Shown: one piece after another, positions 4,722 to 38,851 of the stretch
Layout of the letters: every line of letters begins with the position of its first letter
How positions within the stretch are numbered: the first letter of the stretch is position 1
Origin: Haematococcus lacustris
Lineage: Eukaryota; Chlorophyta; Chlorophyceae; Chlamydomonadales; Haematococcaceae
Reading direction: 5' to 3'
Assembly: GCA_030144725.1 (NCBI GenBank)
Contig: JASKMD010000008.1
Coordinates: forward strand, 18,566,676 to 18,630,675
Length of the DNA stretch: 64,000 nt
Notes under the pieces: model-generated
What the model was told of the DNA's origin: nothing
The model's input: only the letters and a program-made list of their open reading frames with translations
Databases searched by the model: none
Position numbers and translations under genes: made by a program

Positions 4722-5446
4722 GTTGGTTGCAGAAGTCCTTGAGCTGCCTCAGCATCGCTGGGTCCTCGCAGTCAAGGGGCAAGGGAGGGCCAGTGGGTGC
4801 TGCGGGTGCAAAGGCTGCCAGGCGGGCGCTGCAGCGCCTTTGGGGGGGTTGCGTGACTGGCTCGGGTTCTGACTCTGACTCCGAGTCAGACTGTGGCTCT
4901 GGCTCTGAGTCACAGTCCGACTTGGAGTCAGAGTCAGTATCAAACTCCATGCTGGCAGGCTGGGCATGGGCAGGCTGGGCAGGGGCCCGTGGGGGTAGGG
5001 TGGGTAGGGGGGGAGCATCAGGGGGTTGGGGGGGCTGCACGGCTGGAGGCTGAAGTGCGCGTGGGAGTGGATTTCATCCCGCAGCCGGAGGTGCTCCCGC
5101 CTCGTGCGCCTCGTCTTCTTGCAGCCGCGCAGCACTGCGCCCTCGGGGACCTTGATGACCTGCAGCCAATCAAAGTTGCCATTTTGACAGGCCAAGACAC
5201 AAGGCGGGGTCAACACAAACAGTGCGGGGACACATAAGGCGGGGCCGTCACCTGACGTCTGGTCGTGGCCCAGCCATCCCGACGATCCTGTCGTTGCTTG
5301 CCTCGGGCGGAACGAGACGCTGCGATGGAACCAACCGGAGCGACGGGTTATCACACAGCGCGTAGCCCACAGTAGCCCACAGTCGGCTAGGGTCACGCAC
5401 CTTTCTGTTTCTTTCCCGGGTCCTTTATGTGCTTCTTCTTAGCCAT
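4722..5446 (-). pseudogene. Fanzor-like element copy A1, 5' part, broken
   Basis: The minus strand carries the N-terminal part of the family A Fanzor-like protein that is better preserved at 33584-34419. A first exon at 5446-5401 starts with ATG and encodes MAKKKHIKDPGKKQK, a lysine-rich stretch that could be a nuclear localisation signal, followed by a GTGCGT donor. A later exon, after a CTGCAG acceptor near 5172, encodes VIKVPEGAVLRG and a basic helix, then a Pro-rich and a Ser/Asp/Glu-rich linker. Conserved parts fall in two frames (the basic segment in one, CEDPAMLRQLKDFC in another), so there is at least one frameshift. The exon stops abruptly after LKDFC and runs straight into the CTGAC array, losing the rest of the domain seen in copy A2. 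The remainder, if present, lies left of the window. Confidence 0.65.
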
Positions 5447-12689: not shown

Positions 12690-13450
12690 AATACACATGG
12701 TCATGATCACCTACCACCTACACTATTGCCTGACCCCGGAGGGCGATGATGTAGAGTTGGCATGACAAACATGCGCTAAGTGTAAGCTGATGACAGCTCA
12801 AGAGGGGGGGCACACACTACTGTGCCGCAGCGGGCTGGGTCTTGGGTGGCTTGTCTCGCACCCGCTTGTACCCCAGGCCTGGGTACTCATTGCCCTTGGC
12901 TGGCAGAGCTGTCTGCTCTGGCCAGTAGCACAGCTCCAGCGGGCGCCACTTGCTCTCCCCAATGCGCTGCATGTTCAACGCTGCATTGCAGTTCCTGTCC
13001 AGCCACTTGACTGGCTGTGGTGCTGGCTTTGCCTTGGCAGCCTTGCCGTGGGCCTTCCCTTTGCCCCTAGTGGGCTGGCTGGGCTCAGCTGCCTGCTCAG
13101 CCTTGGTGCGCTTGCTGCGCTTGGCTGGCGGGGGATTGCTGGGCCCAGGCTCTGAGGCTGCTGGCTGTGTGGCTGACTGGCTGCTGCCTGGGGCTTGTGT
13201 GGGCTTGCGTGGGGCCCCTACCGGGCACCACATCATGCCCCTCACTGGCTGGTCACGCTGCTGGCTCCAGGCTGGGCGCAGCAGGCGGAGGTCCACCTGC
13301 CCTGCTGGGGGCTTCCAGTCTGCTCGCCTGGTGGCCCTGCGTTTGTTCAGCTGCCTCTCACCCCAATCTGAGTGGCCCTCAATGCCCACCCCAATCTGAG
13401 TGGGCTCATACCAGCGTGTTACTCCGCCACATCACTCTCGCACCTCCAAA
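12690..13450 (-). pseudogene. Fanzor family A relic (A3), internally deleted, catalytic residues altered
   Basis: The minus-strand ORF (stop at 12817) encodes the family A Pro-rich region, a Lys-rich linker and the RuvC-III block with tail (NCNAALNMQRIGESKWRP, LELCYWPEQ). The RuvC-III motif reads DRNCNAAL instead of DRDCNAAL, so the Asp preceding xNAA is Asn. Upstream, near 13390, the RuvC-I segment QIGVGID appears as QIGVGIE and is tandemly duplicated, joined directly to the C-terminal region by deletion of everything between. Downstream, 12690-12816 matches the 3' non-coding block of copies A2 and A4. It cannot encode an active nuclease. It lies antisense in the presumed intron region of the plus-strand gene. 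Confidence 0.75.
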
Positions 13451-16971: not shown

Positions 16972-18258
16972 TTAGCCAGCAGTTGTGGACCTGCTGCTGG
17001 CAGATGTGGGTGACCGGGATTTGATCCCAGACTGCCACTCTGGCGGCAACTCCTCACGGGTGACAAGGGCAAGCAGGCTGGTGGGCAGGGGCCCCTCACA
17101 CAGCAACACCTGATTGGTGGACAAGCCAAACTGCAGCCCTGTGGCCAGTGCAGCCTGCAAATCAGCGGGGCAGTGTTGTGAATAAGCTTGTGATCAACTG
17201 TGGAGCTGGAGCAGCAATTGGAATCAGAAAAAAACATTGGAATAAAGAAAGGCATGTGTCTCCCTGCTGCCTATCCTTTCACCCTGTACCCTTACAGCCC
17301 AGTACCTGCAAGTCCAGTCGCAACAGAACCTGCGCCCAGGAGTTGGTGCGCATGTGGCCTGGCAAGGTGGCAAAGTGGATGTGGGTGCGCCCCATGCGCT
17401 TGATGTAACCGTCCTGCTGGATGGCCGCCCACCTACGCCCAGCACAGGGCGTGTGTGGAAGCGCTGGTCAATGCCTGCCATGGCGCAAGCCTGTCCCGCC
17501 ATGACTGTTTGGGCATCTACTGTGTGGGCTCAGCACGCATATGGGAATGGGGATGCGGCACATGTCCATCCTCTTTGCCCCATCCACAGATGTACGGTAG
17601 CTTGCATGTAGGAGCGGGCATGCTATGTGCACGAGGTGAGAAGCATACACAGGGGTTGGGCATTTGTGGTGATGCCATCCTCCACTTGATTTTTAACCCC
17701 TCACACCCACGGCTTGAAGCACCAGCTCCTGAAAGCTGTGTGGCAGCTTCCATGGCTTAATGGCGTTTGGCTGACGCCTTAACACCAGGCAGCTCTCGGT
17801 TGCAGCTGCTGCGCTGAACGCACCCTTGGTGGCTGGTGACGTGGATGGCAAGAGGCACTTGCTCATGATTTGTGACCCATGTCAGGATTGGGTCCTCCAG
17901 CTGTACGGAGTGGCCCTGGGCTGCGCGAATCCGAGGTGGGTCAGTAGCGTCGTCGAGTACAAACCGTTTCTGCATGCAGAGATAGTTAGGAAAGCTGGGG
18001 CAGCACCTAGGCGCACTGGACGGTCAGCTGTGCTGCAATCCATTGAACCTTGTCGTTGCAGTCAACTACTCGCCGAACTTGCTCCGCAGTCACGTTCCTC
18101 CCAAGGTGCTGTAACAGTAGTGGCAGCGGGACCCATCCCTGTGCGTCCATGGCGCCTGGTGGCGGGCTGTGGCGAAGGATACGGGACATAGCCTTGCTGA
18201 TGCGCACATCATGGTCGTCGACGCGGACCCGCTTGGCACCCGGCTGTACGCCTTTCAT
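16972..18258 (-). CDS. RNA 2'-phosphotransferase, Tpt1/KptA family
   Basis: Four exons close in phase: 18258-18049, 17969-17824, 17432-17306 and 17154-16972, giving 221 residues. Known role of the family: transfer of the splice-junction 2'-phosphate of tRNA to NAD+. Visible family blocks, in order: RISKAMSRILRHSP, AQGWVPLPLLLQHL, CNDKKRFVLDD, IRAAQGHSVQLED, a degenerate HVTSHQGWAAI where the family has HGT, GRTHIHFATLPGHMRTN, and GLQFGLSTNQVLLCEGPLP. The first donor (GTTCAA) is weak. The domain is nearly the whole protein, the usual size for Tpt1. The canonical HGT and SGMR signatures are altered, so activity is uncertain. The ATG lies exactly at the edge of the 712-bp duplicated segment starting at 18257. 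That segment must supply its 5' untranslated region and promoter. Confidence 0.85.
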
Positions 18259-18968
18259 CGAATAGAGGTCACGAAGGTGGCATGATTCACTCTGTTGCAT
18301 GGACTGCCTGGGGTTCAGGAGTTGCATTGCCCCATGTGTCCATGCAGGTGGCTGCGGCCAGTGAAAAGCATGGCAAAGCGTTCCCAAGTCCGGGGCCTGA
18401 TGTGCTCAACAAGCATCAACAACATCACCAGGTAAGCACAGACCCAATCCTACAAATGTGCATGACATGAACATATCCCACATGACATGACACATGAATT
18501 GACGTCATGCATCCCCCACACCCATGTGCAGGTTCTATGACCGGGACGTGTCAGCCGCGCTGAACATCCGCCGCTGTGCAGTCGGCCCAGGGCCACGTCC
18601 CACTGAGCTGTGCTACTGGACTTACCGCCCAGCCATGCCAAAGCCAGGCGAGCCAGGCCAGGAGTGGGTGGAGATACCCAACAAGCCCCTGTTGCGCAAG
18701 TGGCAGCGCCAGCTGCAGCAATAGCCAGCTACAGCTCAAGACAATCCCAAGCAAAAAAAACAATGAACCCCTTACAAAGGGGATGTGTGTGGCGCAGGCA
18801 CAGGCACTGGCACAGGCACACACACTAGAAGGCTGAGCTGAAGTGGGCATTAGGCACACTGTCAGTAGCCTTTACAATGATGAGCTCGCAGCCCGGTTCG
18901 ATTCCAACTCATGCTTTATTTGGGAGTAGCATGGTACGAAAAGGATATTTAAACATAAACACCCGCCT
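18257..18968. repeat. 712-bp segment, left copy (flanks the retroelement)
   Basis: This segment recurs at 28725-29436 in the same orientation and looks identical by eye. It begins inside the Tpt1 start codon and ends at CCCGCCT, where the retroelement terminal repeat starts. It contains the Tpt1 5' flank and the C-terminal end of a family B Fanzor-like gene. With the right copy it forms a target-duplication-like frame around the retroelement, far longer than the 4-6 bp expected of an LTR integrase. Confidence 0.93.
18348..18724 (+). pseudogene. Fanzor-like family B fragment (B1), RuvC-III end
   Basis: Two exons, 18348-18431 and 18532-18724 (acceptors CATGCAG and GTGCAG, donor GTAAGC), encode WLRPVKSMAKRSQVRGLMCS and RFYDRDVSAALNIRRC, then ELCYWTYRPAMPKPG and a basic end with stop TAG. 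DRDVSAALNI is the RuvC-III motif of TnpB/Fanzor proteins (DRDxNAAxNI, here Ser for Asn). The exons upstream that copy B3 (37823) still has are missing, so this is a truncated copy. Shared non-coding sequence continues to 18920 and includes a GGTTCGATTCC stretch resembling a tRNA B box. Confidence 0.7.
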
Positions 18969-19726
18969 GTCATGTCCTAATGCGTGTGTCATCATAATGC
19001 GTAACGACAATGAATCCTGTTGATATGGTTGACAACTAGGTAGCGGTTAAAGGTGTTGATCGACGACGTTAGGAGTTGCGTGTTTTCTTATCTTGCATGG
19101 GCGGCTTGCATAGCCGCGCGTGACCGTTGGTATGCCGCTGCATGTGCTTCACCTGTGCGCTGCCTGCGCGTTGCTGTGCCGCCGAAGCGCTGATGGTTGC
19201 ATGATTGATGCGTCCGTAGGACTGTAGGTATTTAGGGTTACACTCAAGCTGCATCGTCAGCTTGAGATTCCTCAACGCAGTGCTCTGCTAGGTGTTAGTA
19301 GTTGTGCTGGAGGCATCGACAGCTCAAATCGTGTAAGGGAACCGCGGTGATTGCGCCCGTGACTTTCCTGTTCAGTGGCAGCCGTGCTCCTGCAGCATTG
19401 CCTGCTTGCCACTGACGAAAACCTTCTAATCTCAAGCTGCTTCCTCGTCGTTCCGAGCGCCTCCGCGGCCCGCGTCGGGTTCGGGTCGAAGGCACCTTCC
19501 AGTTCCAGGACAACCTCGCGTTTGAGGGCGAAGAGGGCTCACATCCTGCGGACGTCCCTCTGCCGGACAACGACGCCCTCGAGGGCCTCTCACCGCACAT
19601 GGCAGCTCCTGCCCCTTCCCGCCAGGGTTTTGTCATTCAGCACCAGCTGCCCTCAGCCGGCAGCGTGCTTGCACCTCATGAGTTGGAGCGTGCTTTGCAG
19701 TGTGTCAGCAGCTTCCTCACAGTCCT
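18967..19726 (+). repeat. Terminal direct repeat of the retroelement, left (760 bp)
   Basis: It starts TGTCATGTCC and ends CTCACAGTCCT, and is repeated at 27964-28723 with one difference noticed (ATGAATCC versus ATTAATCC). It would serve as a 5' LTR, but it extends 128 bp past the gag-pol ATG at 19599. Either the LTR includes the start of the ORF, or the true LTR is shorter and the right copy is the truncated 5' end of a second, tandem element. I could not find a clear tRNA primer-binding site. The start also lacks a short target duplication. Confidence 0.88.
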
Positions 19727-22700
19727 GTGTGATGACCTATCTGATGATGTGCTTCCCCGTGCACTTGCCAAGCTGCCACAGCGGGCAGCTGCCTATGGTG
19801 CATTTGCTGACGGTTGCGCTAAGCCTTCTGTTGTGCAGGCCTACAGCGCAGCCTACACAGCCCTTTCTGAAACCCAAAGCAAAGACTCAGAGCGCTGCAT
19901 CAACCTCCTCCTCGACCTTGTGCGCCAGGATCTGTCTGATCCCGTGCTTCTCAAGGCACAGGTCATGAGCCTACGGCTTGGTGATGTGGGTGAGGGTGGC
20001 CGTGCTGAGACCCCTGCAGCCTTGCACCAGCGCTTGTCACCGCAGCTCATCAGCCTTGCCAAGGAGGGCAGTGTCAGCAAGCTAGAGGCCCTAGGCATCT
20101 ACTTCACTGCCCTTGATGCCCACAGCCGCCACGTGTTGCATACACAAGCGGCACAGTTCATGCGGCGCAGCAAGGAAGGGTTTCTGCGGGCGGCCACACC
20201 CGCAGATGACTCTGTTGAGGCTGCTCTGTTGCGTGCCTCAGCTGCCTCCACACAGGTCTTCAACGAGCTGGTGGGGCTGCTGAAGCTAGAGCAGTCCACA
20301 GCCAGGCCCCTTGGCTCAACCAGCAAGACTGTCAACACCGGGGACCTTGTCGCCAAAGTCCAGGGAGGTGATGTCATGGCAGTCAGGACTGCACAGCGTG
20401 TCGTCAAGCAGCTCAGCACCGCGCTGCAGCCTGCCCCCACCTTGCCTGTACACACACCGGCACGGCCTGGTCTGCAGTGGTGTGATCATCACAAGCGCAT
20501 GGTGTCACATAGCACTGCCGAGTGCCGGCTGGCTGTGGCAGCACCAGCCTCTCGCCCTGTGCCTGCAGCCTCACGCCCACTGCCATCAGCTGCAGCCCTG
20601 CCTGATGCGCACTCCAGTCTGCCCGCCATGGATGCTGCCACCCATGCGCAATGGCAGCAGTTTCAGCAGTTTCTGGCCATGCAAGCATCCCACTCACATG
20701 CTGCTGCTGCCCCTGTGCTCCGCGCACACACAGCCGCTCCTCGCCCCCGCTGCCTCCACTGTGGCAAGGAGGGCCAAAATGAGGATCGCTGCTTCATCAA
20801 GCATCCTGAGCTGCGCCCAACGCAATGGGGCCCTACGCGCACCATGGCCCTTTCCACTGTGCCAGAAGAAGAGATAAGTCACAGCTTCAGCGGCTGCCTT
20901 GCTGGCAGTGTTGGGTTCACTGACCAGGGCAGCAGCCAGCCTGCGCATGCCCATGCAGCAGCTGCTGATCGTCCACTGTCCTTCACACCAGGCAGTGCTA
21001 CCGTGCCACGCACCCCTGCCCGTGCACCAGAGCCAGCTGAGCAGCCCTGCCTAGCCAGCCTGGCTACTGCTGTCGCCACAATCAGCAATCAGCTTGCAGA
21101 GCTAAAGCAGCTGTCACTCATCACCACAGAGCACGTGGCACAGTTGCAGGCTCAGATGCCACTGGCCTTGGCTGTCAAAGCTAGTGCAAGCCCTTCCATG
21201 GCAGCCAGCAGCACTGTGCCATGCATCGTGGGTCCTGACCTGAAATCCAACCTGCCATATGCTCTACCTTTTGCAGCCAATCCCTCAGTGGCTGCAGGGC
21301 TGTCACTGGCAGATCTGCATGGCACACACCACGTCGTGCCCGGTGTCATGCTAGACTCAGGGTCCGCTGCCACTATGCTCACTACCACCCTCACTCAGCA
21401 GTTGCAGCTGCATCAGATGCCCTGCCAGCAGCGTATCATCCAGTCAGGGGGGGTGGCATTCCAGGTCCTGGGTGCTGTCATGGTGGAGGTGGGGTTGGGT
21501 GTAGGAGGCACACATCCTGCTCGGTCCCGTCACCGTGCATTGGTGGTTGCGGACACACCCAGCCTGCCATATAACGCCCTCATTGGCACCGATGTCTTCT
21601 ACAAGCACGGTGTGCAACTGGACTTGCCTGGCAGGTTGCTGAGCTACGCCCCACGCTTGGCCAGCCACCGTGAGCCGCAGCCCCGCCACACCATGCCTCT
21701 CTTCTTTGAGTTCCCTGCAACCTCCAGCACCGAGCTGCTAAGCCTCAGCGCCACCCCATTGTGGGCATGTGCAACCCTCCCCGAGCCAGCCAGCGACGGG
21801 GGTGCGGACAGCGGCAGCGGTCATACCAGCGCGAGCTACCTGGGGGCTCCAGGGGTAGCGCCAATGGCGACCAGCGCCACCCCTGGTTGCAGCCACGCCC
21901 CCAGTGTTGCGGAGGATCAGCCGGGGGCGGAAGTCAGGGGTCTTCCCCCGGCCCCTCGCAGCAAGCCCGGCCGCGGCATGGACAGACCGCAGCTGCCTAC
22001 CCGTACCCCCAAGCACCAGCGGCTCGGGGCAGCGGCAGCACGGCGCCGCAGCAAGCGGGAGTCACCCTCTCCCTCCTTCCGCCAGCAGCTGGCCGTCATG
22101 TTCAGTAAGGGTGTCAGCATGCGCACTCTGTGCCACACCCTACTGCTGTTGCTGTGCACTCTGGTGCATGGCACCCTGCCTAGTGCCTTGCCACCGGCCA
22201 CCTCCCTGTTCAGCGGCTCAACCATCAGCAGCACCCTCCCTGACGGCCAGCAGCACCTGCCCCCTGATGTGCGCTTCACAAAGCACGCAAAGGGAATGCT
22301 GTTTGGCAACCACCCTGGCATGCTGGCCACACAGCGTGCTGCCTTGCAGTCCCTGGTGGAGGCTCATGACAATGCCTTCTCCTACAGCTTGTCTGACCTA
22401 CCAGGGTACCATGGCCCACGCCCTCCATTCACTATCCCCCTCACCACAACTGAGCCTGTGCGCAGCCCCCCACGCCGCTACAGCCCCATCGAGCGTCAGA
22501 TCTGCACTGACAAGACTGCTGAGCTGCAGGCAGCTGGCATTGTGTCCCCGGTGGAAGGCCCATGCAACTACGCTGCTGCACCCGTCCTACCGGCAAAGAA
22601 GGATGTGCATGGCAATTGGACTGAGAAGCGGTTCGCCATCGACTTCCGGCAGCTCAATGCCGCCACACAGCCTGACATCTACGGCCTGCCCCGCCCTGAG

Positions 22701-25700
22701 GAAATGTTCAGTGAGTTGGGGGACTGCTGCTTTTTCAGCAAGTTGGACATGCGCAGTGGCTTCTTTCAGCTGCATATTGCACCAGCTGACCGCATCAAGA
22801 CAGCTTTCTGGTGTGGCAACAAACTGTATCAGTTCAACCGAATGCCATTTGGCCTGCGCAACGCCCCAGCTGAGTACCAGCGTGTCATGGACCGCTGCAT
22901 TGCTGATGCCAGCCTCACCCACTGCTGCAAGGCCTACATTGACGACCTGCTGGTGCACAGCTCTTCCGCTGAGCAACACTTGCAGGATGTTGCAGCAGCC
23001 CTACGGATGCTCCAGGCCAACGGGCTCAAGGCTCACCCAGACAAGAGCCTGTTTGGGGCTGATGTGGTGGAGTATCTGGGCCACAATGTCAGTGCTCACG
23101 GCTTGTCACCCACTGAAGCCAAAGTGGCAGCCATCCGTGCCCTGCCTAGCCCCACCAACCTGCATGAGTTGCGCCAGATCATGGGCTTTCTCAACTACTA
23201 TCGTTGCTTTGTGCCCAACTACTCTGCCATCGCAGCGCCGATCATCCGCCTCACCGGCAAGGGTGTGCCCTGGCAGTGGGAGGAGCAGCAGCAACAGGCC
23301 TTCGCCACCCTTAAGGCAGCCCTGTGCACCCCTGGTCTGGTGTTGCGTCGTGCTGACCCCTCACGACCCTATCTGTTGCACACGGACTGGTCAGCCCTGG
23401 GCTGTGGGGCAGTTTTGGGGCAGGTTGATTCAGCAGGGCAGGAGTACATGGTGGCGTGCATCAGCCGCAGCAATAACAAGCATGAGCGGCAGTACAGCTC
23501 TTACCAGGGAGAGATGCTCAGTGCAGTGTGGGCAGTCAAAACTCTACGCGCTTACCTCCATGGCGCTGAGTTCACCCTCATCACTGACCACCAACCCTTG
23601 ACCTGGCTGATGACCAATCCCAACCTCACAGGCCACCATGCGCGCTGGGCTCTCAGCCTGCAAGACTACTCCTTCGTCATCCAGCACCGCCCTGGCATCA
23701 AGCACCAGAATGCTGACGTGCTATCCCGCTGGCCGTTACCATGTGACGACGACGGCACCGGCGCTCGCTTGGACCCTGACCAGCCAGCGGCAGCCCTGGC
23801 TTCCTTCCCACCTACGGCTGCGCCTCTTGACTCTGTGGTACAGTCCTGCGCGAGCTACTGGCCCTTTGATGCTGACTATGCTACGCACCCTGCTGACCTG
23901 CTGTTGGGCAACCTTGGGGGCGAACTGGATGCCACCTGCCATGCTCCAGCTCCCATCACCACCTATGCTACCGCAGCGCTGCAACAATTGCAACACACAG
24001 CAGCTGCCATGCTCAGTCGTGCAGCTAGCAGCCTGGCCTGCCTCACACCTGCTGTCACTTGCCTGGGGCTAGCATCAGGCCCTCGAGACACCTTTGGAGT
24101 CGCCCGCCCCGTGCGCCTCAACACCAACCTGGTTGCCAACTCCTTCTTCCCTGCCATTTGCCACAAGGGCGTGGTGCTGCTAGAGCTGTTCGGTGGGCTG
24201 TGTGCTGGTTTGGACATGTGCTTGCGCAATGGCATCAACGTTCACCAGTACATCTACTGTGACACTGACCCAGCGGCTCAGCGTGTTGCGCACCACCGCT
24301 TGGCACACCTGTCTGCCCAATACCCAGCTCAGCTGCCCCCATGCGCCTACGCTGCTGCGTTCACCACCCTTCCATCTGATGTGCGCCATGTCACCACCAA
24401 GCAGCTTGTGCACTGTGGTGCCACAGCTGGCAGGCAGTGGTTAGTGGTGGCAGGCTGGGAATGCCAAGACCTGTCACCTGCTGGCTCCCAGGCCGGCATG
24501 CATGGCCCGCACTCCTCCACTCACACCGCTTGCTTGCGCATCGTGGGCGCACTCCAGCAGCTGCAGCGTAGCCTGCCCCCTGCCTACATGTTTGAAAATG
24601 CTGCTGTACAACACAACTTCATCAGCTCGGCAGTGCGTGGGCAGCTGCAACCACTGTGCCACATGTTTGGCGAACCGCTGTGCTTTGACGCAGCCATGGT
24701 GGGCTCCTATGCCCACCGTGTGCGCAACTACTGGACCAACTTGTGCGACACAGCTGCTGCCGCTTGTGTGCTGGCTCATGCCACCCGTGGTCCCATTCAG
24801 GTGCAGGACATCCTGGATCCTGGTCGCACAGCTCCTCGTGCAACCACGTGGCCCCCCCCACCAGCCTGCCAATGTGAGACTGTGGGCCAGCCACTGCGGG
24901 CACTACCCACCCTGGTGGCCACTCCTGGGTCATACGCCTTCCGATCCGGTGGGCCCGGCCTCATGCTTAACTCTGACGGCACCACCAGTGAGCCTACAGT
25001 GGGTGAGCGTGAGCGTGCGCTTGGGTACGGCACAGGTGCCACAGCTGCTGCCAGGGTAACTCATGCCCAACGCTTCGCCATCCTTGGCCGCTGCATGGAT
25101 GCCTATGCCATGCAGTCCTTGCTGGCAGTAGCACATGCCTTGCATCATCCGCCTGCTGCTGCGGCTCTCGCACAACTCCCACCCAGCCCTGCCTCCTGTG
25201 CTTGCATGCTGGGGGGAAGCTCTGATACCTTGACCACTGAGCATGCAACCCCTGTCGGCAGTGCAGCCTCACCAGCCTGCCTAGCTGCAGCCCTTACCGC
25301 AGCCGCAGAGGAGACGAGTGACATCCACACGGACACGGCAACATTTCACCTCCTGCGCACTGGAGCACACCAGTCAGGCCTTTCAGCCACCGAGCTTCGC
25401 CGTGTGCTGCGCCGCGCCAAAGCCTACCGGTGGGAAGGGGATCAGTTGCGTCGTGTCATGGCTGATGGCAGCACAAAGCTTGTCCCCCCACCTGCTGCCC
25501 GTGACCAGCTTATCACAGCGGTGCACGGCAGCAATGGCCACTTTGGGGTTAGGCGCACCACTTCCATGTTGTTGTACAGCTACTGGTGGCCCGGTGTGCA
25601 CTCTGATGTGGCTCGTGTCCTCAAGTCCTGTCACGTTTGTGATAGGGCCCGGGCCAGCTTCAACTTGCGCGCTGCTCAGCTGTCCCCTCTCCCAGTGGCA

Positions 25701-27197
25701 GGTCTCTTCTACCGTTGGGGTGTGGACCTGGCTGGGCCGCTGCCCCGCACCCATAGAGGCAACGAGTACCTCATGGTGTGCATTGAGCACCTCACCAAGC
25801 ACGTGGAGCTCGTCCCCATCCCTGACCGCCTGGCCAGCACCACGGCGTACCACTTCAACCACCAGGTTCTTGGCCGTTTTGGCGCCAGCGCCGAGGTTGT
25901 GACAGATGGGGGGAGGGAGTTTAAGGGCGAGTTTGCTGATCTGCTCCTGCGCAACCTGATCGATCACCGGGTCACCTCCCCTCATCACCCTCAGGCAGAT
26001 GGGTTAGCAGAGCGGGCGGTGCAAACCTTCAAGAAAGCTCTGCGCAAGCATATTGCTGTGGCTGGTGACCCAGCTGCCTGGGATGAGGCTCTGCCTGCCA
26101 TAGCCTTGGGGTACAGGGTCTCACCCCAGCAAGCCACGCGCTGCAGCCCCTACTCTCTGCTGTATGGTCGTGCACCTGTGCTGCCCCCTGCGGTAGTAGA
26201 GCGCATAGCCTGCCCTGTCAGCTTTGACGACCCAGCGCTGGCAGCAGCTAGTCTCTTGCAGCGCTCAGCTGTGCTCAGCCGTGAAACAGCTGTTGCCATG
26301 GGGAACATCCGCACTGCCCAACATCGTGACACCTTGCGCTACGCCCTAACTCACAACGGCAGTTACAAACCAGCTGCTCGGCAGTTGCACCCAGGCATGT
26401 TTGTGTGGACTCAGCGCCCACAGAGCAGCACCCTGCAGCTCAGCGCTCGGCCAGAGATCTTCCGGGTGGTGTCAGTGAATAGCAACGGGGTGGCTCGCCT
26501 CATGGGCAGGTGTGGGCGGGTCATGGCAGAAAATGTGTGCAACCTTGCCCCCTGCCACCTGCCTGACATTGACCCAACCATTGACCACACCTTGGCTCGC
26601 CCAGCTGCTGACTTCCCCTGCTCAATCTGCAAGTCACCCGCTGACGCCGACCGCTTGCTGCTGTGCGATGGTTGCGGCACTGGCTACCATACCTTCTGCC
26701 TTACCCCGCCGCTGGCTGCTGTGCCTGAGGGCACATGGTTGTGCCCAGCCTGCCATGCTAAGGGCATCAGTGTGCAGCATGTGCAGCAGCGCACCGAAGC
26801 CGTCACCCAACAACCCACGCCTACGCCACTCAGGGAAGTGTTCACAGCCAAGCAAGGCCGGGACAGGGCTGCGTCAGCTCAGCAGTTGCACGGTCGGGTG
26901 GTGTATCAGCCTGCCAGCAAATTGTGGGGGGTTGTGCGCTTCCGGGGCCATCAGTTCCACCCCCATTACTTTGCCGTAGATTGGGTGGATGGCACAGTTA
27001 CCGATGCTGTCAGCCCCACCGTGCTGCGCAACCGCGGCTGGCTGCAGCCGGAAGGCACTGTTCTCTATGCTACACCCACAGCTCAACACCCTGTCCCTGC
27101 TTTACACCCTAATGTGGCTGGCCATGTGCCCAGGCGGTCCTCACGCACCGGGCGAGCCCGGGATACCTCTCAAGGGGATGTCGCCCCTCCGACCTAA
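19599..27197 (+). CDS. Ty3/gypsy-class gag-pol polyprotein with DNA methyltransferase and PHD finger
   Basis: One uninterrupted 2532-residue frame. Gag: a zinc knuckle at C385-x2-C388-x4-Q393-x4-C398 (Gln in place of His). Protease: DSG at 586-588. Reverse transcriptase about 945-1180 with YIDD at 1113-1116. RNase H about 1258-1375 with D1263. Cytosine-5 DNA methyltransferase about 1515-1850: motif I ELFGG at 1529-1533, motif IV WECQD with C1622 as the putative nucleophile, motif VI ENA at 1666-1668, motif VIII RVR at 1707-1709, motif X-like ALGYGTG. Integrase: H1976, H1981, C2011, C2014, then D2043-x59-D2103-x34-E2138. PHD finger (C4HC3) about 2341-2385, CSIC to CPAC, then a possible SH3-like fold. 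The frame is open for about 60 codons upstream of the ATG without another Met. The protease, reverse transcriptase, RNase H, integrase order is Metaviridae-like. Integrity and near-identical termini suggest recent activity. Confidence 0.95.
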   Translation: MAAPAPSRQGFVIQHQLPSAGSVLAPHELERALQCVSSFLTVLCDDLSDDVLPRALAKLPQRAAAYGAFADGCAKPSVVQAYSAAYTALSETQSKDSERCINLLLDLVRQDLSDPVLLKAQVMSLRLGDVGEGGRAETPAALHQRLSPQLISLAKEGSVSKLEALGIYFTALDAHSRHVLHTQAAQFMRRSKEGFLRAATPADDSVEAALLRASAASTQVFNELVGLLKLEQSTARPLGSTSKTVNTGDLVAKVQGGDVMAVRTAQRVVKQLSTALQPAPTLPVHTPARPGLQWCDHHKRMVSHSTAECRLAVAAPASRPVPAASRPLPSAAALPDAHSSLPAMDAATHAQWQQFQQFLAMQASHSHAAAAPVLRAHTAAPRPRCLHCGKEGQNEDRCFIKHPELRPTQWGPTRTMALSTVPEEEISHSFSGCLAGSVGFTDQGSSQPAHAHAAAADRPLSFTPGSATVPRTPARAPEPAEQPCLASLATAVATISNQLAELKQLSLITTEHVAQLQAQMPLALAVKASASPSMAASSTVPCIVGPDLKSNLPYALPFAANPSVAAGLSLADLHGTHHVVPGVMLDSGSAATMLTTTLTQQLQLHQMPCQQRIIQSGGVAFQVLGAVMVEVGLGVGGTHPARSRHRALVVADTPSLPYNALIGTDVFYKHGVQLDLPGRLLSYAPRLASHREPQPRHTMPLFFEFPATSSTELLSLSATPLWACATLPEPASDGGADSGSGHTSASYLGAPGVAPMATSATPGCSHAPSVAEDQPGAEVRGLPPAPRSKPGRGMDRPQLPTRTPKHQRLGAAAARRRSKRESPSPSFRQQLAVMFSKGVSMRTLCHTLLLLLCTLVHGTLPSALPPATSLFSGSTISSTLPDGQQHLPPDVRFTKHAKGMLFGNHPGMLATQRAALQSLVEAHDNAFSYSLSDLPGYHGPRPPFTIPLTTTEPVRSPPRRYSPIERQICTDKTAELQAAGIVSPVEGPCNYAAAPVLPAKKDVHGNWTEKRFAIDFRQLNAATQPDIYGLPRPEEMFSELGDCCFFSKLDMRSGFFQLHIAPADRIKTAFWCGNKLYQFNRMPFGLRNAPAEYQRVMDRCIADASLTHCCKAYIDDLLVHSSSAEQHLQDVAAALRMLQANGLKAHPDKSLFGADVVEYLGHNVSAHGLSPTEAKVAAIRALPSPTNLHELRQIMGFLNYYRCFVPNYSAIAAPIIRLTGKGVPWQWEEQQQQAFATLKAALCTPGLVLRRADPSRPYLLHTDWSALGCGAVLGQVDSAGQEYMVACISRSNNKHERQYSSYQGEMLSAVWAVKTLRAYLHGAEFTLITDHQPLTWLMTNPNLTGHHARWALSLQDYSFVIQHRPGIKHQNADVLSRWPLPCDDDGTGARLDPDQPAAALASFPPTAAPLDSVVQSCASYWPFDADYATHPADLLLGNLGGELDATCHAPAPITTYATAALQQLQHTAAAMLSRAASSLACLTPAVTCLGLASGPRDTFGVARPVRLNTNLVANSFFPAICHKGVVLLELFGGLCAGLDMCLRNGINVHQYIYCDTDPAAQRVAHHRLAHLSAQYPAQLPPCAYAAAFTTLPSDVRHVTTKQLVHCGATAGRQWLVVAGWECQDLSPAGSQAGMHGPHSSTHTACLRIVGALQQLQRSLPPAYMFENAAVQHNFISSAVRGQLQPLCHMFGEPLCFDAAMVGSYAHRVRNYWTNLCDTAAAACVLAHATRGPIQVQDILDPGRTAPRATTWPPPPACQCETVGQPLRALPTLVATPGSYAFRSGGPGLMLNSDGTTSEPTVGERERALGYGTGATAAARVTHAQRFAILGRCMDAYAMQSLLAVAHALHHPPAAAALAQLPPSPASCACMLGGSSDTLTTEHATPVGSAASPACLAAALTAAAEETSDIHTDTATFHLLRTGAHQSGLSATELRRVLRRAKAYRWEGDQLRRVMADGSTKLVPPPAARDQLITAVHGSNGHFGVRRTTSMLLYSYWWPGVHSDVARVLKSCHVCDRARASFNLRAAQLSPLPVAGLFYRWGVDLAGPLPRTHRGNEYLMVCIEHLTKHVELVPIPDRLASTTAYHFNHQVLGRFGASAEVVTDGGREFKGEFADLLLRNLIDHRVTSPHHPQADGLAERAVQTFKKALRKHIAVAGDPAAWDEALPAIALGYRVSPQQATRCSPYSLLYGRAPVLPPAVVERIACPVSFDDPALAAASLLQRSAVLSRETAVAMGNIRTAQHRDTLRYALTHNGSYKPAARQLHPGMFVWTQRPQSSTLQLSARPEIFRVVSVNSNGVARLMGRCGRVMAENVCNLAPCHLPDIDPTIDHTLARPAADFPCSICKSPADADRLLLCDGCGTGYHTFCLTPPLAAVPEGTWLCPACHAKGISVQHVQQRTEAVTQQPTPTPLREVFTAKQGRDRAASAQQLHGRVVYQPASKLWGVVRFRGHQFHPHYFAVDWVDGTVTDAVSPTVLRNRGWLQPEGTVLYATPTAQHPVPALHPNVAGHVPRRSSRTGRARDTSQGDVAPPT

Positions 27198-27963
27198 TGG
27201 GCGACTCTCAGCGTGAGTGCCGTTCCAGCAGCCTGAGGTGTACCGTGCTCATGCACTTCCTTGCCTTGCTGCCAGGACATGGTGCATCCGGAGGTGGCTG
27301 CTGGCCTGGAGCTGGCCTGGAGCTGACTTGGCGTGGCACCCCACTACCACATTCTCCGCTTCTCTTCTGATTCCTAGCGCACATCAGCGCCGCCATTTTC
27401 TACCATTGGTGGCACCGGCATGGAGCTTGCTCCTAACCGGCACTGGGGTCGATAAACCCTGGTGACCTCACCTAGGCCTTGCCTTCAGGCCGTACCCCCA
27501 ACACAGCGACAGCCGGGTGGGTGAGGGAAGGCCAGCAGTCTCTGGTCAGCTGGTGAGGGTTTAGTTGGTTTACCCACCAGCCCGGCGGCATGGACAGCTG
27601 CCCAGCGCCGGTTGTAGCCGCGGTTCCCATATAGTCATGCCTCCAGCTTTGTGAACACTAGGGTTTAGGGTTGCCTTACTAGGAGATGATGCTTGCTTGT
27701 GCCTGCTGTCTTGTGTGTATGTCTGTTGTTGCCTGCTGACTCATGTTTGCATCATGTTACACATCCATCTGCCTAAAACTCTCATGTTATCATCACATGC
27801 TACGCTGTCATACAACTCCTGCTTGTTCACCATGCATTTGCACATTCTGATCATCATGCTGTGCCCATGCTGCTTCATTTAGTGCACTGATCGGTGAGAA
27901 CCACCATCTCGTGCACTGGGGGGAATATGCATCAGGTCACAGCGCAGTTATGAGGCGCGACAG
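27198..27963 (+). other. Retroelement 3' non-coding region
   Basis: This 766-bp stretch lies between the gag-pol stop and the right terminal repeat. A G-rich run (GGGGGGAA near 27920) could act as a polypurine tract, though it is 40 bp from the repeat. A single TTTAGGG telomere-like unit occurs near 27663. No ORF is convincing. Confidence 0.5.
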
Positions 27964-28723
27964 CTGTCATGTCCTAATGCGTGTGTCATCATAATGCGTA
28001 ACGACAATTAATCCTGTTGATATGGTTGACAACTAGGTAGCGGTTAAAGGTGTTGATCGACGACGTTAGGAGTTGCGTGTTTTCTTATCTTGCATGGGCG
28101 GCTTGCATAGCCGCGCGTGACCGTTGGTATGCCGCTGCATGTGCTTCACCTGTGCGCTGCCTGCGCGTTGCTGTGCCGCCGAAGCGCTGATGGTTGCATG
28201 ATTGATGCGTCCGTAGGACTGTAGGTATTTAGGGTTACACTCAAGCTGCATCGTCAGCTTGAGATTCCTCAACGCAGTGCTCTGCTAGGTGTTAGTAGTT
28301 GTGCTGGAGGCATCGACAGCTCAAATCGTGTAAGGGAACCGCGGTGATTGCGCCCGTGACTTTCCTGTTCAGTGGCAGCCGTGCTCCTGCAGCATTGCCT
28401 GCTTGCCACTGACGAAAACCTTCTAATCTCAAGCTGCTTCCTCGTCGTTCCGAGCGCCTCCGCGGCCCGCGTCGGGTTCGGGTCGAAGGCACCTTCCAGT
28501 TCCAGGACAACCTCGCGTTTGAGGGCGAAGAGGGCTCACATCCTGCGGACGTCCCTCTGCCGGACAACGACGCCCTCGAGGGCCTCTCACCGCACATGGC
28601 AGCTCCTGCCCCTTCCCGCCAGGGTTTTGTCATTCAGCACCAGCTGCCCTCAGCCGGCAGCGTGCTTGCACCTCATGAGTTGGAGCGTGCTTTGCAGTGT
28701 GTCAGCAGCTTCCTCACAGTCCT
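27964..28723 (+). repeat. Terminal direct repeat of the retroelement, right (760 bp)
   Basis: Right copy of 18967-19726, almost identical, including the first 42 codons of gag. It ends at CAGTCCT and is followed by one A and then the right copy of the 712-bp segment. Confidence 0.88.
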
Positions 28724-28724
28724 A

Positions 28725-29436
28725 ATCGAATAGAGGTCACGAAGGTGGCATGATTCACTCTGTTGCATGGACTGCCTGGGGTTCAGGAGTTGCATTGCCC
28801 CATGTGTCCATGCAGGTGGCTGCGGCCAGTGAAAAGCATGGCAAAGCGTTCCCAAGTCCGGGGCCTGATGTGCTCAACAAGCATCAACAACATCACCAGG
28901 TAAGCACAGACCCAATCCTACAAATGTGCATGACATGAACATATCCCACATGACATGACACATGAATTGACGTCATGCATCCCCCACACCCATGTGCAGG
29001 TTCTATGACCGGGACGTGTCAGCCGCGCTGAACATCCGCCGCTGTGCAGTCGGCCCAGGGCCACGTCCCACTGAGCTGTGCTACTGGACTTACCGCCCAG
29101 CCATGCCAAAGCCAGGCGAGCCAGGCCAGGAGTGGGTGGAGATACCCAACAAGCCCCTGTTGCGCAAGTGGCAGCGCCAGCTGCAGCAATAGCCAGCTAC
29201 AGCTCAAGACAATCCCAAGCAAAAAAAACAATGAACCCCTTACAAAGGGGATGTGTGTGGCGCAGGCACAGGCACTGGCACAGGCACACACACTAGAAGG
29301 CTGAGCTGAAGTGGGCATTAGGCACACTGTCAGTAGCCTTTACAATGATGAGCTCGCAGCCCGGTTCGATTCCAACTCATGCTTTATTTGGGAGTAGCAT
29401 GGTACGAAAAGGATATTTAAACATAAACACCCGCCT
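28725..29436. repeat. 712-bp segment, right copy
   Basis: Duplicate of 18257-18968. Here it carries the Tpt1 5' flank without Tpt1, because the retroelement terminal repeat precedes it. After CCCGCCT the sequence becomes unique (AAAGGCATATTG), which should be the original right flank of the insertion site. Confidence 0.93.
28816..29192 (+). pseudogene. Fanzor-like family B fragment (B2)
   Basis: This is the same two C-terminal exons as B1 (28816-28899 and 29000-29192), with RFYDRDVSAALNI and the stop intact. It exists because the 712-bp segment was duplicated and is not an independent insertion. Confidence 0.7.
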
Positions 29437-29560
29437 AAAGGCATATTGTCACCAAATACCAGGCCTAGTGTCATCACAGTGCCATTGCGTCATCAGCTAT
29501 AGGGTTGTTACATCATTAATCACCCACTCTAGCCCACCCACGCCTGCCGCCAGTGTCTCC

Positions 29561-29816
29561 AGCCCCCTCGTCCCGCACTAGGGCTTCCATTTGAGCCGGA
29601 CCAATAGTGGCCACTAGCAGCCACTAGTGGGAATACTAGAGACCAATAGTGGCCCGACGCAAACGGTGTTATTGGGCTGTGTGGAGTAAACCCAGTGCAC
29701 ATGGCACATGAGCGCCTACCACCTACACTATTGCCTGACCCGTTAGGGCTATTGTGTAGAGTTGGCATGACAAAACATGCACTAATGTAAGCTGATGACA
29801 GCTCAAGAATGGGGCA
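29561..29816 (-). ncRNA. Conserved 3' block of Fanzor copy A2, candidate guide-RNA region
   Basis: This block directly follows the family A stop codon on the minus strand and is conserved in copy A4 (39206-39463) and partly in A3 (12690-12816), although it does not code. It contains inverted repeats around CCAATAGTGG, GGCCACTAGC and CCACTAGTGG (29608-29655) and the constant string CCTACCACCTACACTATTGCCTG-like segment near 29716. Known biology: the guide RNAs of Fanzor and TnpB nucleases overlap the 3' end and downstream flank of their genes. Assigning that role here is inference. It could instead be only the 3' untranslated region and transposon end. Confidence 0.35.
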
Positions 29817-32012
29817 TACACTACTGTGCCAAGCAGGCTGCTGCTCCTGGGCCTTGGGTGGCTTGTCTCGCAGCCGCTTGTACCCCAGGCCTGGGTACTC
29901 CTTGCCCTTGGCTGGCAGCTTCCCCTGCTCTGGCCAGTAGCACAGCTCCAGTGGGCGCCACTTGCTCTCCCCAATACGCTGCATGTTCAGCGCTGCATTG
30001 CAGTCCCTGTCCAGCCACCTGCCTGGCTGTGGTGCTGGCTTGCCCTCGCCCTTGCCCTTGCCCTTGGTGGGCTGGGTGGGCTCAGCTGCCTGCCCAGCCT
30101 CCATGCGCTTGCTGCGCTTGGCTGGAGGGGGATTGCTGGGCCCAGGCTATGAGGCTGCTAGCTGTGTGGCTGCCTGGCCTAGGGCCTGTGGGGGCTTGCG
30201 TGGGGCCACTGCCGGGCACCACATCATGCCCCTCACTGGCTGGTCACGCCGCTGGCTCCATGCTGGGCGCACAAGGTGCTGTTCCACCTGCCCTGCTGGT
30301 GGCTTCCAGCCTGCTGGCCTTGTGGCACTGAGTGTGTTCAGCTCCTCCTCACATGGCTGCTTGCCATTCACTGCTGAGCTGACCCGGCTGGTGCGGTGCT
30401 CATCCACAAGCACCACCCTGCCTCGACACTGGCATGCGCCCCTGGGCCTGCACACCACCTTGCAGCAGGCACACAACACCGCAGTTCCTCTAAGGCGTCA
30501 ACAACACAGCGGCACATGGCGTTCGGCTGACATCAGCACCCCACCCTCCCTGGGTGCCAATGCTAGCTGCTCCAAAGAACACCGCCAGCTGCTTGGCATG
30601 CCCATGGCGCTTCATTGACACCTCCGCCATGTCCTCCTCCAACTGCAGCCATGCACACAAGGCACACACATGGTGGCTGACATGGTGGCACCAGGTTAGG
30701 CATTGCACAGTCAACTACTCTTTCACTTCATGCCTAATTCACCACCTCCCAGTCCCTTACCCTCCCTCCCATGGACACCTCCCACCACCTCTCAATCCCT
30801 TACCCTCCCTCCCACCCACCCACCCTCGCCTTCTTGAAGAACTGCTCCAGTGCCCGGTCCTGGGCTCCGTACAGCCTCAGCCGCTGCCGTGCCCACTTGG
30901 GGTCCAGGTACACCTCCCACACCGCATCCCAGGTGGCCAGGGTGACGGTGATGTGCTTCAGGTTAGCCACTAGGGAGGTGCCGGCTGAACTTGCTGCTGC
31001 AAAGTGCTGGAGGTGGGGCTTGATTGGTGCTAGCCACCGCTCAGTGTCACGGCGGGCAATGTTCAAGCCGCTGGCATGCATCACCTGGCCCTTGGTCAGC
31101 TTCCACCGGGCCAGCTGGTCAGCTACCAGCAAGCCAGACCTCACGTCCCACACCCCTGAGGCTGCGCTGACTGCCTGGGTGACGCCGGGGTCGATGCCCA
31201 CCCCAATCTGTGTGTCTGGGTCAAACAGGTACTCACGCGTCTCAGGTACGCCCCTGCCTATGTGGGGGAGTCCCACTGCATGGGCCGCTGCTGAAGCTGC
31301 ACTTGGGCGGCTGTTGCTGCTGTTGCTGCTGGCCGCAGGGGGTGGGGCAGGAGGAGGGGGGAGGGGGCGTGTGTAGTGCACGCACACGCCGACACCGTCA
31401 GTGTCCACCGTCCTCTTGAAAGCAAACTCTTTGTTGCGAAGCTTTTTGGTGTCGAACAACCTGGCCCAGTGCTGGCTCAATGCTGGCTCTGAAGTGAATG
31501 CTGCCCGGCTTTCCTTGGTTAGACCCAGCTGCTTGCACACCCCATGCAGCACCCTGCTGTCCACCTTAATGAAGTGAAGGCCCACCCTGGCCATGGGGGT
31601 GAGGGTGAAGGGGGGTTGGGCAGGTCACGGTCCGGGGACCAACCCCACGCCTCTTGCCGCGCTTTGGCTGCCCCGGCACAGGTAGGGTGGGGGGCTGCTG
31701 CCACTGCTCGAGACACCGGTACACATGCACTGCATGGCGCATGCGGCAGGGCAGGGGCAGGGTGTCCTGCAGGGAGCCTTGCTGCTTCATGCCCAGCAGA
31801 CAGTGGTGCTTGTTAGCCTCCTGAACCAAGTCAGCCACAAGCCCCTTGTCCAGGTTGACGGCCTGCGGCTCTGAGCTCTGGGCATTGATGCCATACCCAC
31901 ACGCCATCTTGATGAATAGCTGAGCCTCCTCCCCGCTCCAGCCTAGCCGGGCCCTGGCAGCCTTGGCGTACAGCTTGACAAAGCGCTCTGCAGGTCAGGT
32001 ACAGGTCAGGTA

Positions 32013-32955
32013 TAGGTCAGGTCAGGTCAGGTCAGGTCAGGTCAGGTCAGGTCAGGTCAGGTCAGGTCAGGTCAGGTCAGGTCAGGTCAGGTCAGGTCAG
32101 GTCAGGTCAGGTCAGGTCAGGTCAGGTCAGGTCAGGTCAGGTCAGGTCAGGTCAGGTCAGGTCAGGTCAGGTCAGGTCAGGTCAGGTCAGGTCAGGTCAG
32201 GTCAGGTCAGGTCAGGTCAGGTCAGGTCAGGTCAGGTCAGGTCAGGTCAGGTCAGGTCAGGTCAGGTCAGGTCAGGTCAGGTCAGGTCAGGTCAGGTCAG
32301 GTCAGGTCAGGTCAGGTCAGGTCAGGTCAGGTCAGGTCAGGTCAGGTCAGGTCAGGTCAGGTCAGGTCAGGTCAGGTCAGGTCAGGTCAGGTCAGGTCAG
32401 GTCAGGTCAGGTCAGGTCAGGTCAGGTCAGGTCAGGTCAGGTCAGGTCAGGTCAGGTCAGGTCAGGTCAGGTCAGGTCAGGTCAGGTCAGGTCAGGTCAG
32501 GTCAGGTCAGGTCAGGTCAGGTCAGGTCAGGTCAGGTCAGGTCAGGTCAGGTCAGGTCAGGTCAGGTCAGGTCAGGTCAGGTCAGGTCAGGTCAGGTCAG
32601 GTCAGGTCAGGTCAGGTCAGGTCAGGTCAGGTCAGGTCAGGTCAGGTCAGGTCAGGTCAGGTCAGGTCAGGTCAGGTCAGGTCAGGTCAGGTCAGGTCAG
32701 GTCAGGTCAGGTCAGGTCAGGTCAGGTCAGGTCAGGTCAGGTCAGGTCAGGTCAGGTCAGGTCAGGTCAGGTCAGGTCAGGTCAGGTCAGGTCAGGTCAG
32801 GTCAGGTCAGGTCAGGTCAGGTCAGGTCAGGTCAGGTCAGGTCAGGTCAGGTCAGGTCAGGTCAGGTCAGGTCAGGTCAGGTCAGGTCAGGTCAGGTCAG
32901 GTCAGGTCAGGTCAGGTCAGGTCAGGTCAGGTCAGGTCAGGTCAGGTCAGGTCAG
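32013..32955. repeat. (GTCAG)n array inside the Fanzor A2 intron, 0.94 kb
   Basis: About 188 perfect GTCAG units; the minus strand reads (CTGAC)n. On its exon-3 side (31987-32012) it degrades to GTACAGGTCAGGTATAG before the CTGCAG acceptor, so on the coding strand it occupies the branch-point and polypyrimidine zone of the intron. On the other side it joins a truncated exon duplicate. The plus strand can be read as an endless VRSGQ peptide, which is an artefact. Confidence 0.97.
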
Positions 32956-37822: not shown

Positions 37823-38568
37823 GTCAACACGCAGGCAAAGAAGCTGTGGCCGGACCGCATCCTGGCCCTGGCCTATGGGGCAGCTGGCTTCAAGGGCAGC
37901 GGCACCATTGGCTGCAGGGGTGTCCCTGTCAACCAGATGCAGAAGGAGGCAGTGAAGCAGTTCAGGCCAGAGCGTGTGGTGCTGGTGGATGAGTTCCGCA
38001 CCAGCCGGGTCAGCTCAGCCGACAACACCCCCAGCGAGACCCTCCTTGACACGCCGCCTGAGTCCTTCAGGTGAGGGGGGTGAGGATAGGGCAAGTTGTT
38101 GGCAGTGTTGGGAGGTGGTGGAGTCAGGGTGACTTGGCCGGGTCAAGATGGAAAATCTTACAAATGTGTATTGCCCCATGTGTCCATGCAGGTGGCTGCG
38201 GCCAGTGAAAAGCATGGCAAAGCGTTCCCAAGTCCGGGGCCTGATGTGCTCAACAAGCATCAACAACATCACCAGGTAAGCACAGACCCAATCCTACTCA
38301 TGTGCATGACATGAGCATATCCCACATGACATGACACATGAATTGACGTCATGCATCTCCCACACCCATGTGCAGGTTCTATGACCGGGACGTGTCAGCC
38401 GCGCTGAACATCCGCCGCTGTGCAGTCGGCCCAGGGCCACGTCCCACTGAGCTGTGCTACTGGACTAACCGCCCAGCCATGCCAAAGCCAGGCGAGCCAG
38501 GCCAGGAGTGGGTGGAGATACCCGACAAGCCCCTGTCGCGCAAGTGGCAGCGCCAGCTGCAGCAATAG
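37823..38568 (+). pseudogene. Fanzor-like family B, C-terminal half (B3)
   Basis: Three exons splice in phase (37823-38070, 38192-38275, 38376-38568; donors GTGAGG and GTAAGC, acceptors GCTGCAG, CATGCAG, GTGCAG). They encode KKLWPDRILALAYGAAGFKG, VVLVDEFRTSRVSS, VRGLMCSTSINNIT and RFYDRDVSAALNIRRC to a TAG stop, with no lesion. This is the conserved C-terminal half of algal Fanzor proteins, including the RuvC-III motif. The N-terminal domain and RuvC-I are absent upstream: I find no further exon between 37400 and 37800, so the copy is 5' truncated. Non-coding sequence shared with B1, B2 and 53760-53905 continues to about 38815, 37 bp before the PRKRIP1 start codon. Confidence 0.72.
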
Positions 38569-38851
38569 CCAGCTACAGCTCAAGACAATCCCAAGCAAAA
38601 AAAACAATGAACCCCTTACAAAGGGGATGTGTGTGGCGCAGGCACAGGCACTGGCACAGGCACACACACCAGAAGGCTGAGCTGAAGTGGGCATTAGGCA
38701 CACTGTCAGTAGCCTTTACAATGATGAGCTCGCAGCCCGGTTCGATTCCAACTCATGCTTTATTTTGGTGTAGCATGAGGGCTGTGGGGTTCAAGAGGTG
38801 CAAGGGGGTGTTACGTAAGAAAGAAACTCGACGTGCTACGGAGCAGCGACG

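What the first reader, a model, noticed from the sequence alone, without database searches (positions are those of the whole stretch)
19599..27197. Retrotransposon polyprotein with built-in DNA methyltransferase and PHD finger
Seen: one intact frame with protease, RT (YIDD), RNase H, then motifs of a cytosine-5 methyltransferase (ELFGG, ECQ with Cys, ENA, RxR, a C-terminal motif X-like block), then a DDE integrase and a C4HC3 PHD finger. Known: DNA methyltransferase capture by Ty3/gypsy and copia elements has been described in a few algae and dinoflagellates, and chromatin-reading chromodomains occur in chromoviruses. Inference: this element may methylate target or own DNA and use the PHD finger to direct integration to particular histone marks. 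Writer plus reader in one polyprotein is unusual.
Basis: partly seen in the sequence, partly recalled or inferred. Interest (0 to 1): 0.93.

Follow-up and report, generated by a model that had tools for sequence, protein, structure and literature searches.

The report
Algal retrotransposon with chromatin-modifying domains
A jumping gene of green algae carries, in one long protein, an enzyme domain of the type that adds methyl marks to DNA together with two domains of types that usually read histone marks, and some relatives, one of them in Chlamydomonas, keep the methyl-enzyme domain without its catalytic residues.

The parts
18967..19726 (+). 5' LTR (or its surviving part); it contains the first 42 codons of the ORF
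   Evidence: 760-bp direct repeat with 27964-28723, 1 mismatch; true ends uncertain
27964..28723 (+). 3' LTR (or its surviving part); a polypurine-like GGGGGG lies about 40 bp upstream (about 27918-27923)
19599..27197 (+). Gag-Pol polyprotein ORF, 2,532 aa
   Evidence: start codon uncertain, since the ATG lies inside the LTR repeat
21354..21368 (+). aspartic protease active-site motif DSG (residues 586-590)
   Evidence: only a weak, sub-cut-off Asp_protease_2 match
22620..23669 (+). reverse transcriptase (YIDD) and RNase H (residues 1008-1357)
   Evidence: Pfam RVT_1 1.2e-26, RT_RNaseH 9.8e-31
24144..25169 (+). DNMT3-like C5-cytosine methyltransferase domain (residues 1516-1857); motif residues Cys1622 (24462-24464), Glu1666, Arg1709
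25485..25991 (+). integrase zinc-binding (H2C2) and DDE core (residues 1963-2131 by Pfam; the Glu lies just behind, in 2136-2142)
26619..26753 (+). C4HC3 PHD finger (residues 2341-2385)
26856..27065 (+). PTM/DIR17-like Tudor domain (confidently modelled part, residues about 2420-2489)
   Evidence: PF21743 matched by 3 of 10 aligned relatives, best 1.6e-7, not by the window's own piece; alignment A6; beta-rich model, pLDDT 84-92
18257..18968 (.). 712-bp flank, duplicated at 100% on the other side of the element
   Evidence: unexplained
28725..29436 (.). second copy of the 712-bp flank

Best explanation
This is a young, apparently intact Ty3/gypsy-type LTR retrotransposon of a green alga, most likely Haematococcus lacustris or a very near relative. 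It belongs to a lineage whose Pol acquired a DNMT3-like methyltransferase between RNase H and integrase and a PHD plus Tudor module behind the integrase. Most likely mechanism: the integrase tail (PHD, then Tudor) holds the pre-integration complex on nucleosomes of a particular state, probably with an unmodified H3K4 tail, and the methyltransferase, delivered in the same complex, methylates cytosines de novo on the new cDNA or at the insertion site, so that the copy settles into and reinforces quiet, methylated chromatin. This is the write-plus-read logic of cellular DNMT3 (catalytic domain plus ADD and PWWP readers; recalled) built from other reader modules. Shown: domain identity, predicted fold, conserved catalytic residues, family-wide co-occurrence, faster divergence where catalysis is lost. 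Inferred: methylation itself, its target, the histone marks read and any targeting.
For: Fold and profile: DNMT3B/3A best. In the set picked by RT and not by MTase, 92 of 120 keep Cys, Glu, Asn and Arg, 111 have an MTase match, 100 a PHD, 95 both. Where catalysis was lost the MTase/RT distance ratio is 4.6 to 5.0, one pair 7.5 (36 pairs of 9 rows), against 1.4 to 2.9 in live rows (146 rows), so live lineages look constrained. PHD: solved PHDs nearest to it include KDM5B, LID, KDM5A and CHD4, with BAZ2, PHF21A, UHRF1 and AIRE below, several of which bind unmodified H3K4 (recalled); the slot two before the zinc-binding His, where trimethyl-lysine readers keep a cage Trp (recalled), is Gly in 145 of 162 family PHDs and Trp in none. 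Tudor family match. Precedent: SymbioDIRS-Dnmt3 domains methylate CG in yeast (PMC5890265 section 10).
Against: The closest published type, KnitGypsy-Dnmt3, gave no methylation in yeast, which its authors call inconclusive because DNMT3B failed too. The Pro of the usual Pro-Cys motif is Glu here and in 100 of 163 live members. The domain is dispensable: absent in two clades and catalytically dead in a third. CpG depletion of the ORF (o/e 0.49) is no stronger than in the window around it (0.35 to 0.51), and the LTR is not depleted (0.92), so there is no element-specific footprint of self-methylation. The PHD list also holds KMT2C/D, DPF, WSTF, ATXR5 and KAT6 fingers, which are not all H3K4me0 readers. 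Other genomic copies and insertion sites could not be seen: the genome search did not complete.
Confidence: 0.6

Rival explanations
1. The methyltransferase fold is a structural or DNA- or SAM-binding module (for example a clamp in the reverse-transcription or integration complex), and methylation is not what selection keeps.
For: A whole clade (9 dead rows plus 1 partial, SH-aLRT 100 on a quick tree) keeps the domain in long polyproteins, 9 of 9 dead rows with a PHD, without motif IV Cys, motif VI or the motif VIII Arg, but with the GG of motif I in 9 of 9. Pro-Cys is Glu-Cys in most live members.
Against: Catalytic residues are kept in 92 of 120 RT-picked relatives and 163 of all 192 proteins; divergence rises sharply once they are lost, which a purely structural role would not predict.
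Confidence: 0.17
2. The enzyme is active, but its benefit is protection of the cDNA or defence against other invaders, not chromatin at the insertion site; PHD and Tudor serve integration separately.
For: Published proposals: cDNA methylation as a self-signal or protection (PMC5890265 passages); antiviral role of transposon methylases (PMC6338049 passages). Five relatives without MTase keep the PHD (P0130, P0137, P0138, P0143, P0156), so the modules are separable.
Against: No direct evidence either way; 95 of 120 RT relatives carry both.
Confidence: 0.18
3. The methyltransferase is a passenger kept by inertia.
For: Absent or dead in at least three clades of the RT tree.
Against: Catalytic residues are conserved at a mean pairwise MTase identity of 46%; an unneeded domain decays, as the dead clade shows.
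Confidence: 0.05

Closest known systems
KnitGypsy-Dnmt3 of Klebsormidium nitens (de Mendoza et al. 2018, PMC5890265)
   Same: Gypsy element with a Dnmt3-type domain inside Pol, conserved key residues, purifying selection reported (passages)
   Different: Charophyte, not chlorophyte; its repeats are described as DIRS-like; PHD is not mentioned ('phd' 0 occurrences in the main text; the figure is not held, so a PHD there is not excluded). No sequence comparison was possible
SymbioDIRS-Dnmt3 and SymbioLINE-Dnmt of dinoflagellates (same paper)
   Same: Retrotransposon-borne C5 methyltransferase; the SymbioDIRS ones methylate CG in yeast
   Different: DIRS elements with a tyrosine recombinase, or LINEs; described as unrelated to the Gypsy case
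Gypsy-10_Ec32 of Ectocarpus (PMC12477816)
   Same: Gypsy element with a C-terminal Tudor domain, called there the first reported TE with one
   Different: Brown alga; 'phd' 0 occurrences and no DNMT for this element in the passages seen
Chromoviruses (chromodomain Ty3/gypsy)
   Same: Reader-type module C-terminal to the integrase
   Different: Chromodomain there (recalled, and listings); PHD plus Tudor here, no chromodomain match in the window's protein
DNMT3A / DNMT3B / DNMT3L
   Same: Catalytic fold, EN, AHRxR and ER..G motifs; a catalytically dead branch recalls DNMT3L (recalled)
   Different: 23% identity over 281 aligned residues; Glu-Cys-Gln where DNMT3A has Pro-Cys-Asn; readers are PHD and Tudor, not ADD and PWWP (recalled)

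Membership tests
Ty3/gypsy LTR retrotransposon | Pol order PR-RT-RNH-INT with a DDE integrase | tested here: met
   MTase sits between RNH and INT; the protease rests on its DSG motif and a sub-cut-off Pfam match
Ty3/gypsy LTR retrotransposon | flanking LTRs | tested here: met
   760-bp direct repeats, 1 mismatch
Ty3/gypsy LTR retrotransposon | short target-site duplication; PBS and PPT abutting the LTRs | tested here: inconclusive
   no short duplication found by eye, a 712-bp flank is duplicated instead; PPT-like run about 40 bp from the repeat edge; no clear PBS
C5-cytosine DNA methyltransferase | class I fold with motifs I, IV (Cys), VI (Glu), VIII (Arg), IX/X | tested here: met
   motif IV is Glu-Cys, not Pro-Cys
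C5-cytosine DNA methyltransferase | methyl transfer to cytosine C5 in DNA | not testable with these tools
   needs expression and bisulfite or nanopore sequencing
DNMT3 family | closer by profile and fold to DNMT3 than to other C5 methyltransferases of known structure | tested here: met
DNMT3 family | one clade with DNMT3 to the exclusion of viral enzymes | tested here: inconclusive
   tree of 16 elements, 22 viral-contig MTases and 1 DNMT3A: clade not found, not rejected (p-AU 0.414); best viral-contig HMM score 64.2 against 62.1 bits for DNMT3A
PHD finger | C4HC3 zinc ligands, Pfam over cut-off | tested here: met
   46 against 24 bits
PTM/DIR17-like Tudor domain | profile match in the window's own protein | tested here: inconclusive
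   none for the window piece, 3 of 10 aligned relatives, best 1.6e-7; 140 of 152 family tails linked by iterated search; not folded alone
KnitGypsy-Dnmt3 lineage | common descent of the MTase capture | not tested
   no K. nitens sequence recognised among the listed hits

The most novel reading that the evidence does not exclude
A green-algal retrotransposon lineage carries a self-contained chromatin writer-reader machine (DNMT3-like enzyme, plus PHD and Tudor on the integrase) that chooses nucleosomes of one histone state and methylates its own insertions there; in a lineage that includes Chlamydomonas the writer has become a DNMT3L-like pseudoenzyme, kept as a fold without catalysis.
Probability: 0.35. 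Interest if true: 0.85.

Novelty: new variant of a known kind. Interest (0 to 1): 0.68.

Why it matters
Why a transposon should carry a DNA methyltransferase, the mark that hosts use to silence it, is open (discussed in PMC5890265, passages). This family offers a natural experiment: related elements with a live writer, a dead writer, or none, most of them with a PHD, one of them in Chlamydomonas reinhardtii, a genetic model. If the readers steer integration and the writer acts on the new copy, it would be a retrotransposon that builds its own chromatin. It also adds a PHD-Tudor pair to the integrase-linked reader modules beyond chromodomains.

Tried and rejected
Copia affiliation: rejected, domain order and integrase fold are gypsy-like. 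MTase as chance motif matches: rejected. CpG-depletion footprint of self-methylation: looked for, not seen. Host or viral origin of the MTase: the tree cannot decide. An alignment for the C-terminus on a short piece (A3) aligned badly and was replaced by A5. PHD and Tudor were not matched by fold: the integrase filled the lists. A PDB profile search with the Tudor family gave no convincing match (13 rows to E 10; the best, a flagellin-type repeat protein, E 6.8e-5, had no stretch passing on its own; KDM4B/4C rows, 3 of 13, at E 0.4 to 2.7). Expanding the dead clade with the Chlamydomonas domain gave 4 proteins, all known already. A DIRS-like reading of the repeats was considered: the order here is flank-LTR-coding-LTR-flank, not A-coding-B-A-B. 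Literature: searches listed no paper whose title or abstract start reports DNMT3 plus PHD (plus Tudor) in one retrotransposon; only three papers were opened. Iyer et al. 2011, cited by PMC5890265 for earlier DNMT-RT links, is not held, so priority is not established. Ka/Ks and copy number of this element: not possible without the genome.

Full report
What is there. The window holds one uninterrupted ORF at 19599-27197 (+), 2,532 codons, between direct repeats 18967-19726 and 27964-28723 that differ at 1 of 760 positions, so the insertion looks young. Pfam finds RT, RNase H, the integrase zinc-binding domain and PHD over their cut-offs; integrase core, protease and C5 methylase stay below them. 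The nearest protein is from Haematococcus lacustris (P0002: 94% in the MTase region; 99% in RT), so the window is probably from that alga or very near it (inference). H. lacustris is a chlorophyte of the Chlamydomonadales.

How general. To avoid choosing relatives by the MTase, I searched with the RT-RNase H region: 338 hits, the best 120 listed. Of these 120, 111 carry an MTase match (E up to 1e-3, fragments included), 100 a PHD, 95 both, 16 MTase only, 5 PHD only, 4 neither. By catalytic residues the same 120 are 92 live (Cys, Glu, Asn and Arg all kept), 11 dead, 8 partial, 9 without domain. Part of the shortfall is truncated contigs or gene models. Five MTase-less members have a spacer of roughly 190 to 220 residues between RNase H and the integrase zinc domain, so loss is real there. 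Named carriers of an MTase match (labels) are Haematococcus lacustris, Chlamydomonas reinhardtii, Pleodorina starrii, Tetrabaena socialis, Monoraphidium neglectum and, by the prefix Chrzof1, probably Chromochloris zofingiensis; one protein is labelled as from a bacterial MAG (P0081), probably a binning error. Most of the others have no host name. The Chara and moth (Cydia) hits have no MTase match; an H. lacustris chromodomain element (P0176) has only a 20-bit fragment.

A dead branch. Over all 192 proteins, 163 have Cys, Glu, Asn and Arg in place, 11 have the domain with these changed, 9 are partial there, 9 have no domain. On an RT-RNase H tree of 80 of 169 usable rows (quick search, where support is less to be trusted), all 9 dead rows present (C. 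reinhardtii, Pleodorina, one Tetrabaena protein and 6 unnamed) plus one partial row form a clade with SH-aLRT 100, joined with two live rows at 98. Two of the 11 dead (P0157, P0175) had too little RT to be placed. All 9 have a PHD. In their alignment motif IV is altered, with a gap right behind it, and motif VI is gone, while the GG of motif I and other blocks remain. The MTase/RT distance ratio is 4.64 (22 pairs), 7.47 (1 pair) and 5.03 (13 pairs) in dead rows by RT-identity bin, against 1.55, 1.91 and 2.91 in the same bins for live rows, and 1.36 to 1.59 for live pairs of 45 to 65% RT identity. Pairs are not independent, but the contrast is large: constraint falls when catalysis goes, which argues that catalysis is what is kept elsewhere. 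That the domain persists as an open frame recalls DNMT3L (recalled).

Mechanism. Most likely the integrase-linked PHD and Tudor place the complex on nucleosomes of a given state, and the DNMT3-like domain methylates the cDNA or the site. Published support for the chemistry is partial: SymbioDIRS-Dnmt3 domains methylate CG in yeast; KnitGypsy-Dnmt3 did not, which the authors call inconclusive (PMC5890265 section 10). In this window CpG is depleted nearly everywhere (o/e 0.49 in the ORF, 0.35 to 0.51 around it) but not in the LTR (0.92), so there is no element-specific footprint.

Origin. DNMT3 likeness is clear, but DNMT3-like enzymes also occur in viral contigs (best 64.2 bits against 62.1 for DNMT3A), and a tree of 16 elements, 22 of these and one DNMT3A neither finds nor rejects a joint clade of elements and DNMT3A (p-AU 0.414). 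The AHRxR form of motif VIII is shared with DNMT3A; the two best viral ORFs printed differ there.

Prior work. DNMT capture by Gypsy (charophyte) and by LINE and DIRS elements (dinoflagellates) is published (PMC5890265; read: parts 1 and 2 of 7, section 10, and passages). Its main text has no 'phd'; its figures are not held. A brown-algal Gypsy element with a Tudor domain was called the first such TE in 2025 (PMC12477816, passages). PMC6338049 (passages) discusses transposon methylases as antiviral. Ten full-text searches, of which I saw listings only apart from these three papers, showed no report of DNMT3 plus PHD in one element; Iyer et al. 2011 could not be read.

Loose ends. The element is flanked by a 712-bp perfect duplication (18257-18968 and 28725-29436) instead of a visible short target-site duplication, with a 98.2% copy of its 611-bp middle at 38167-38777. 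As the flanks are identical and the LTRs nearly so, the duplication seems to date from the insertion. Integrases make duplications of a few bases (recalled), so capture of cDNA by another route or an assembly error are both possible. The genome itself could not be searched.

Noticed in passing
18257-18968 and 28725-29436: A 712-bp flank is repeated at 100% on both sides of the element in place of a short target-site duplication; unusual insertion mode or assembly artefact. Its ORF fragment FYDRDVSAALNIRR... resembles a TnpB/Fanzor C-terminus (recalled; Pfam no hit).
   Followed up: partly
18967-19726: The LTR repeat is CpG-rich (o/e 0.92) in a CpG-poor neighbourhood (0.35-0.51), and the polyprotein's frame begins inside it.
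   Followed up: partly
1-4723 and 31991-32955: Long, nearly perfect arrays of the 5-mer GTCAG/CAGGT (944 and 193 copies).
   Followed up: no
29560-30396, 39204-40073, 12694-13361: A dispersed repeat family about 85% alike; two of the copies follow a copy of the 712-bp flank's middle.
   Followed up: no
relative P0163: One metagenome relative is annotated with MTase, PHD and also a chromodomain (PF00385) in the same polyprotein.
   Followed up: no
relative P0081: A protein of this family is filed under a 'Minisyncoccia bacterium' MAG, probably an algal contig binned wrongly.
   Followed up: no
relatives P0126-P0129 and P0157 (Haematococcus): A second H. lacustris subfamily has a partly eroded MTase region beside a live relative (P0006); whether these are decaying copies or gene-model faults is open.
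   Followed up: partly
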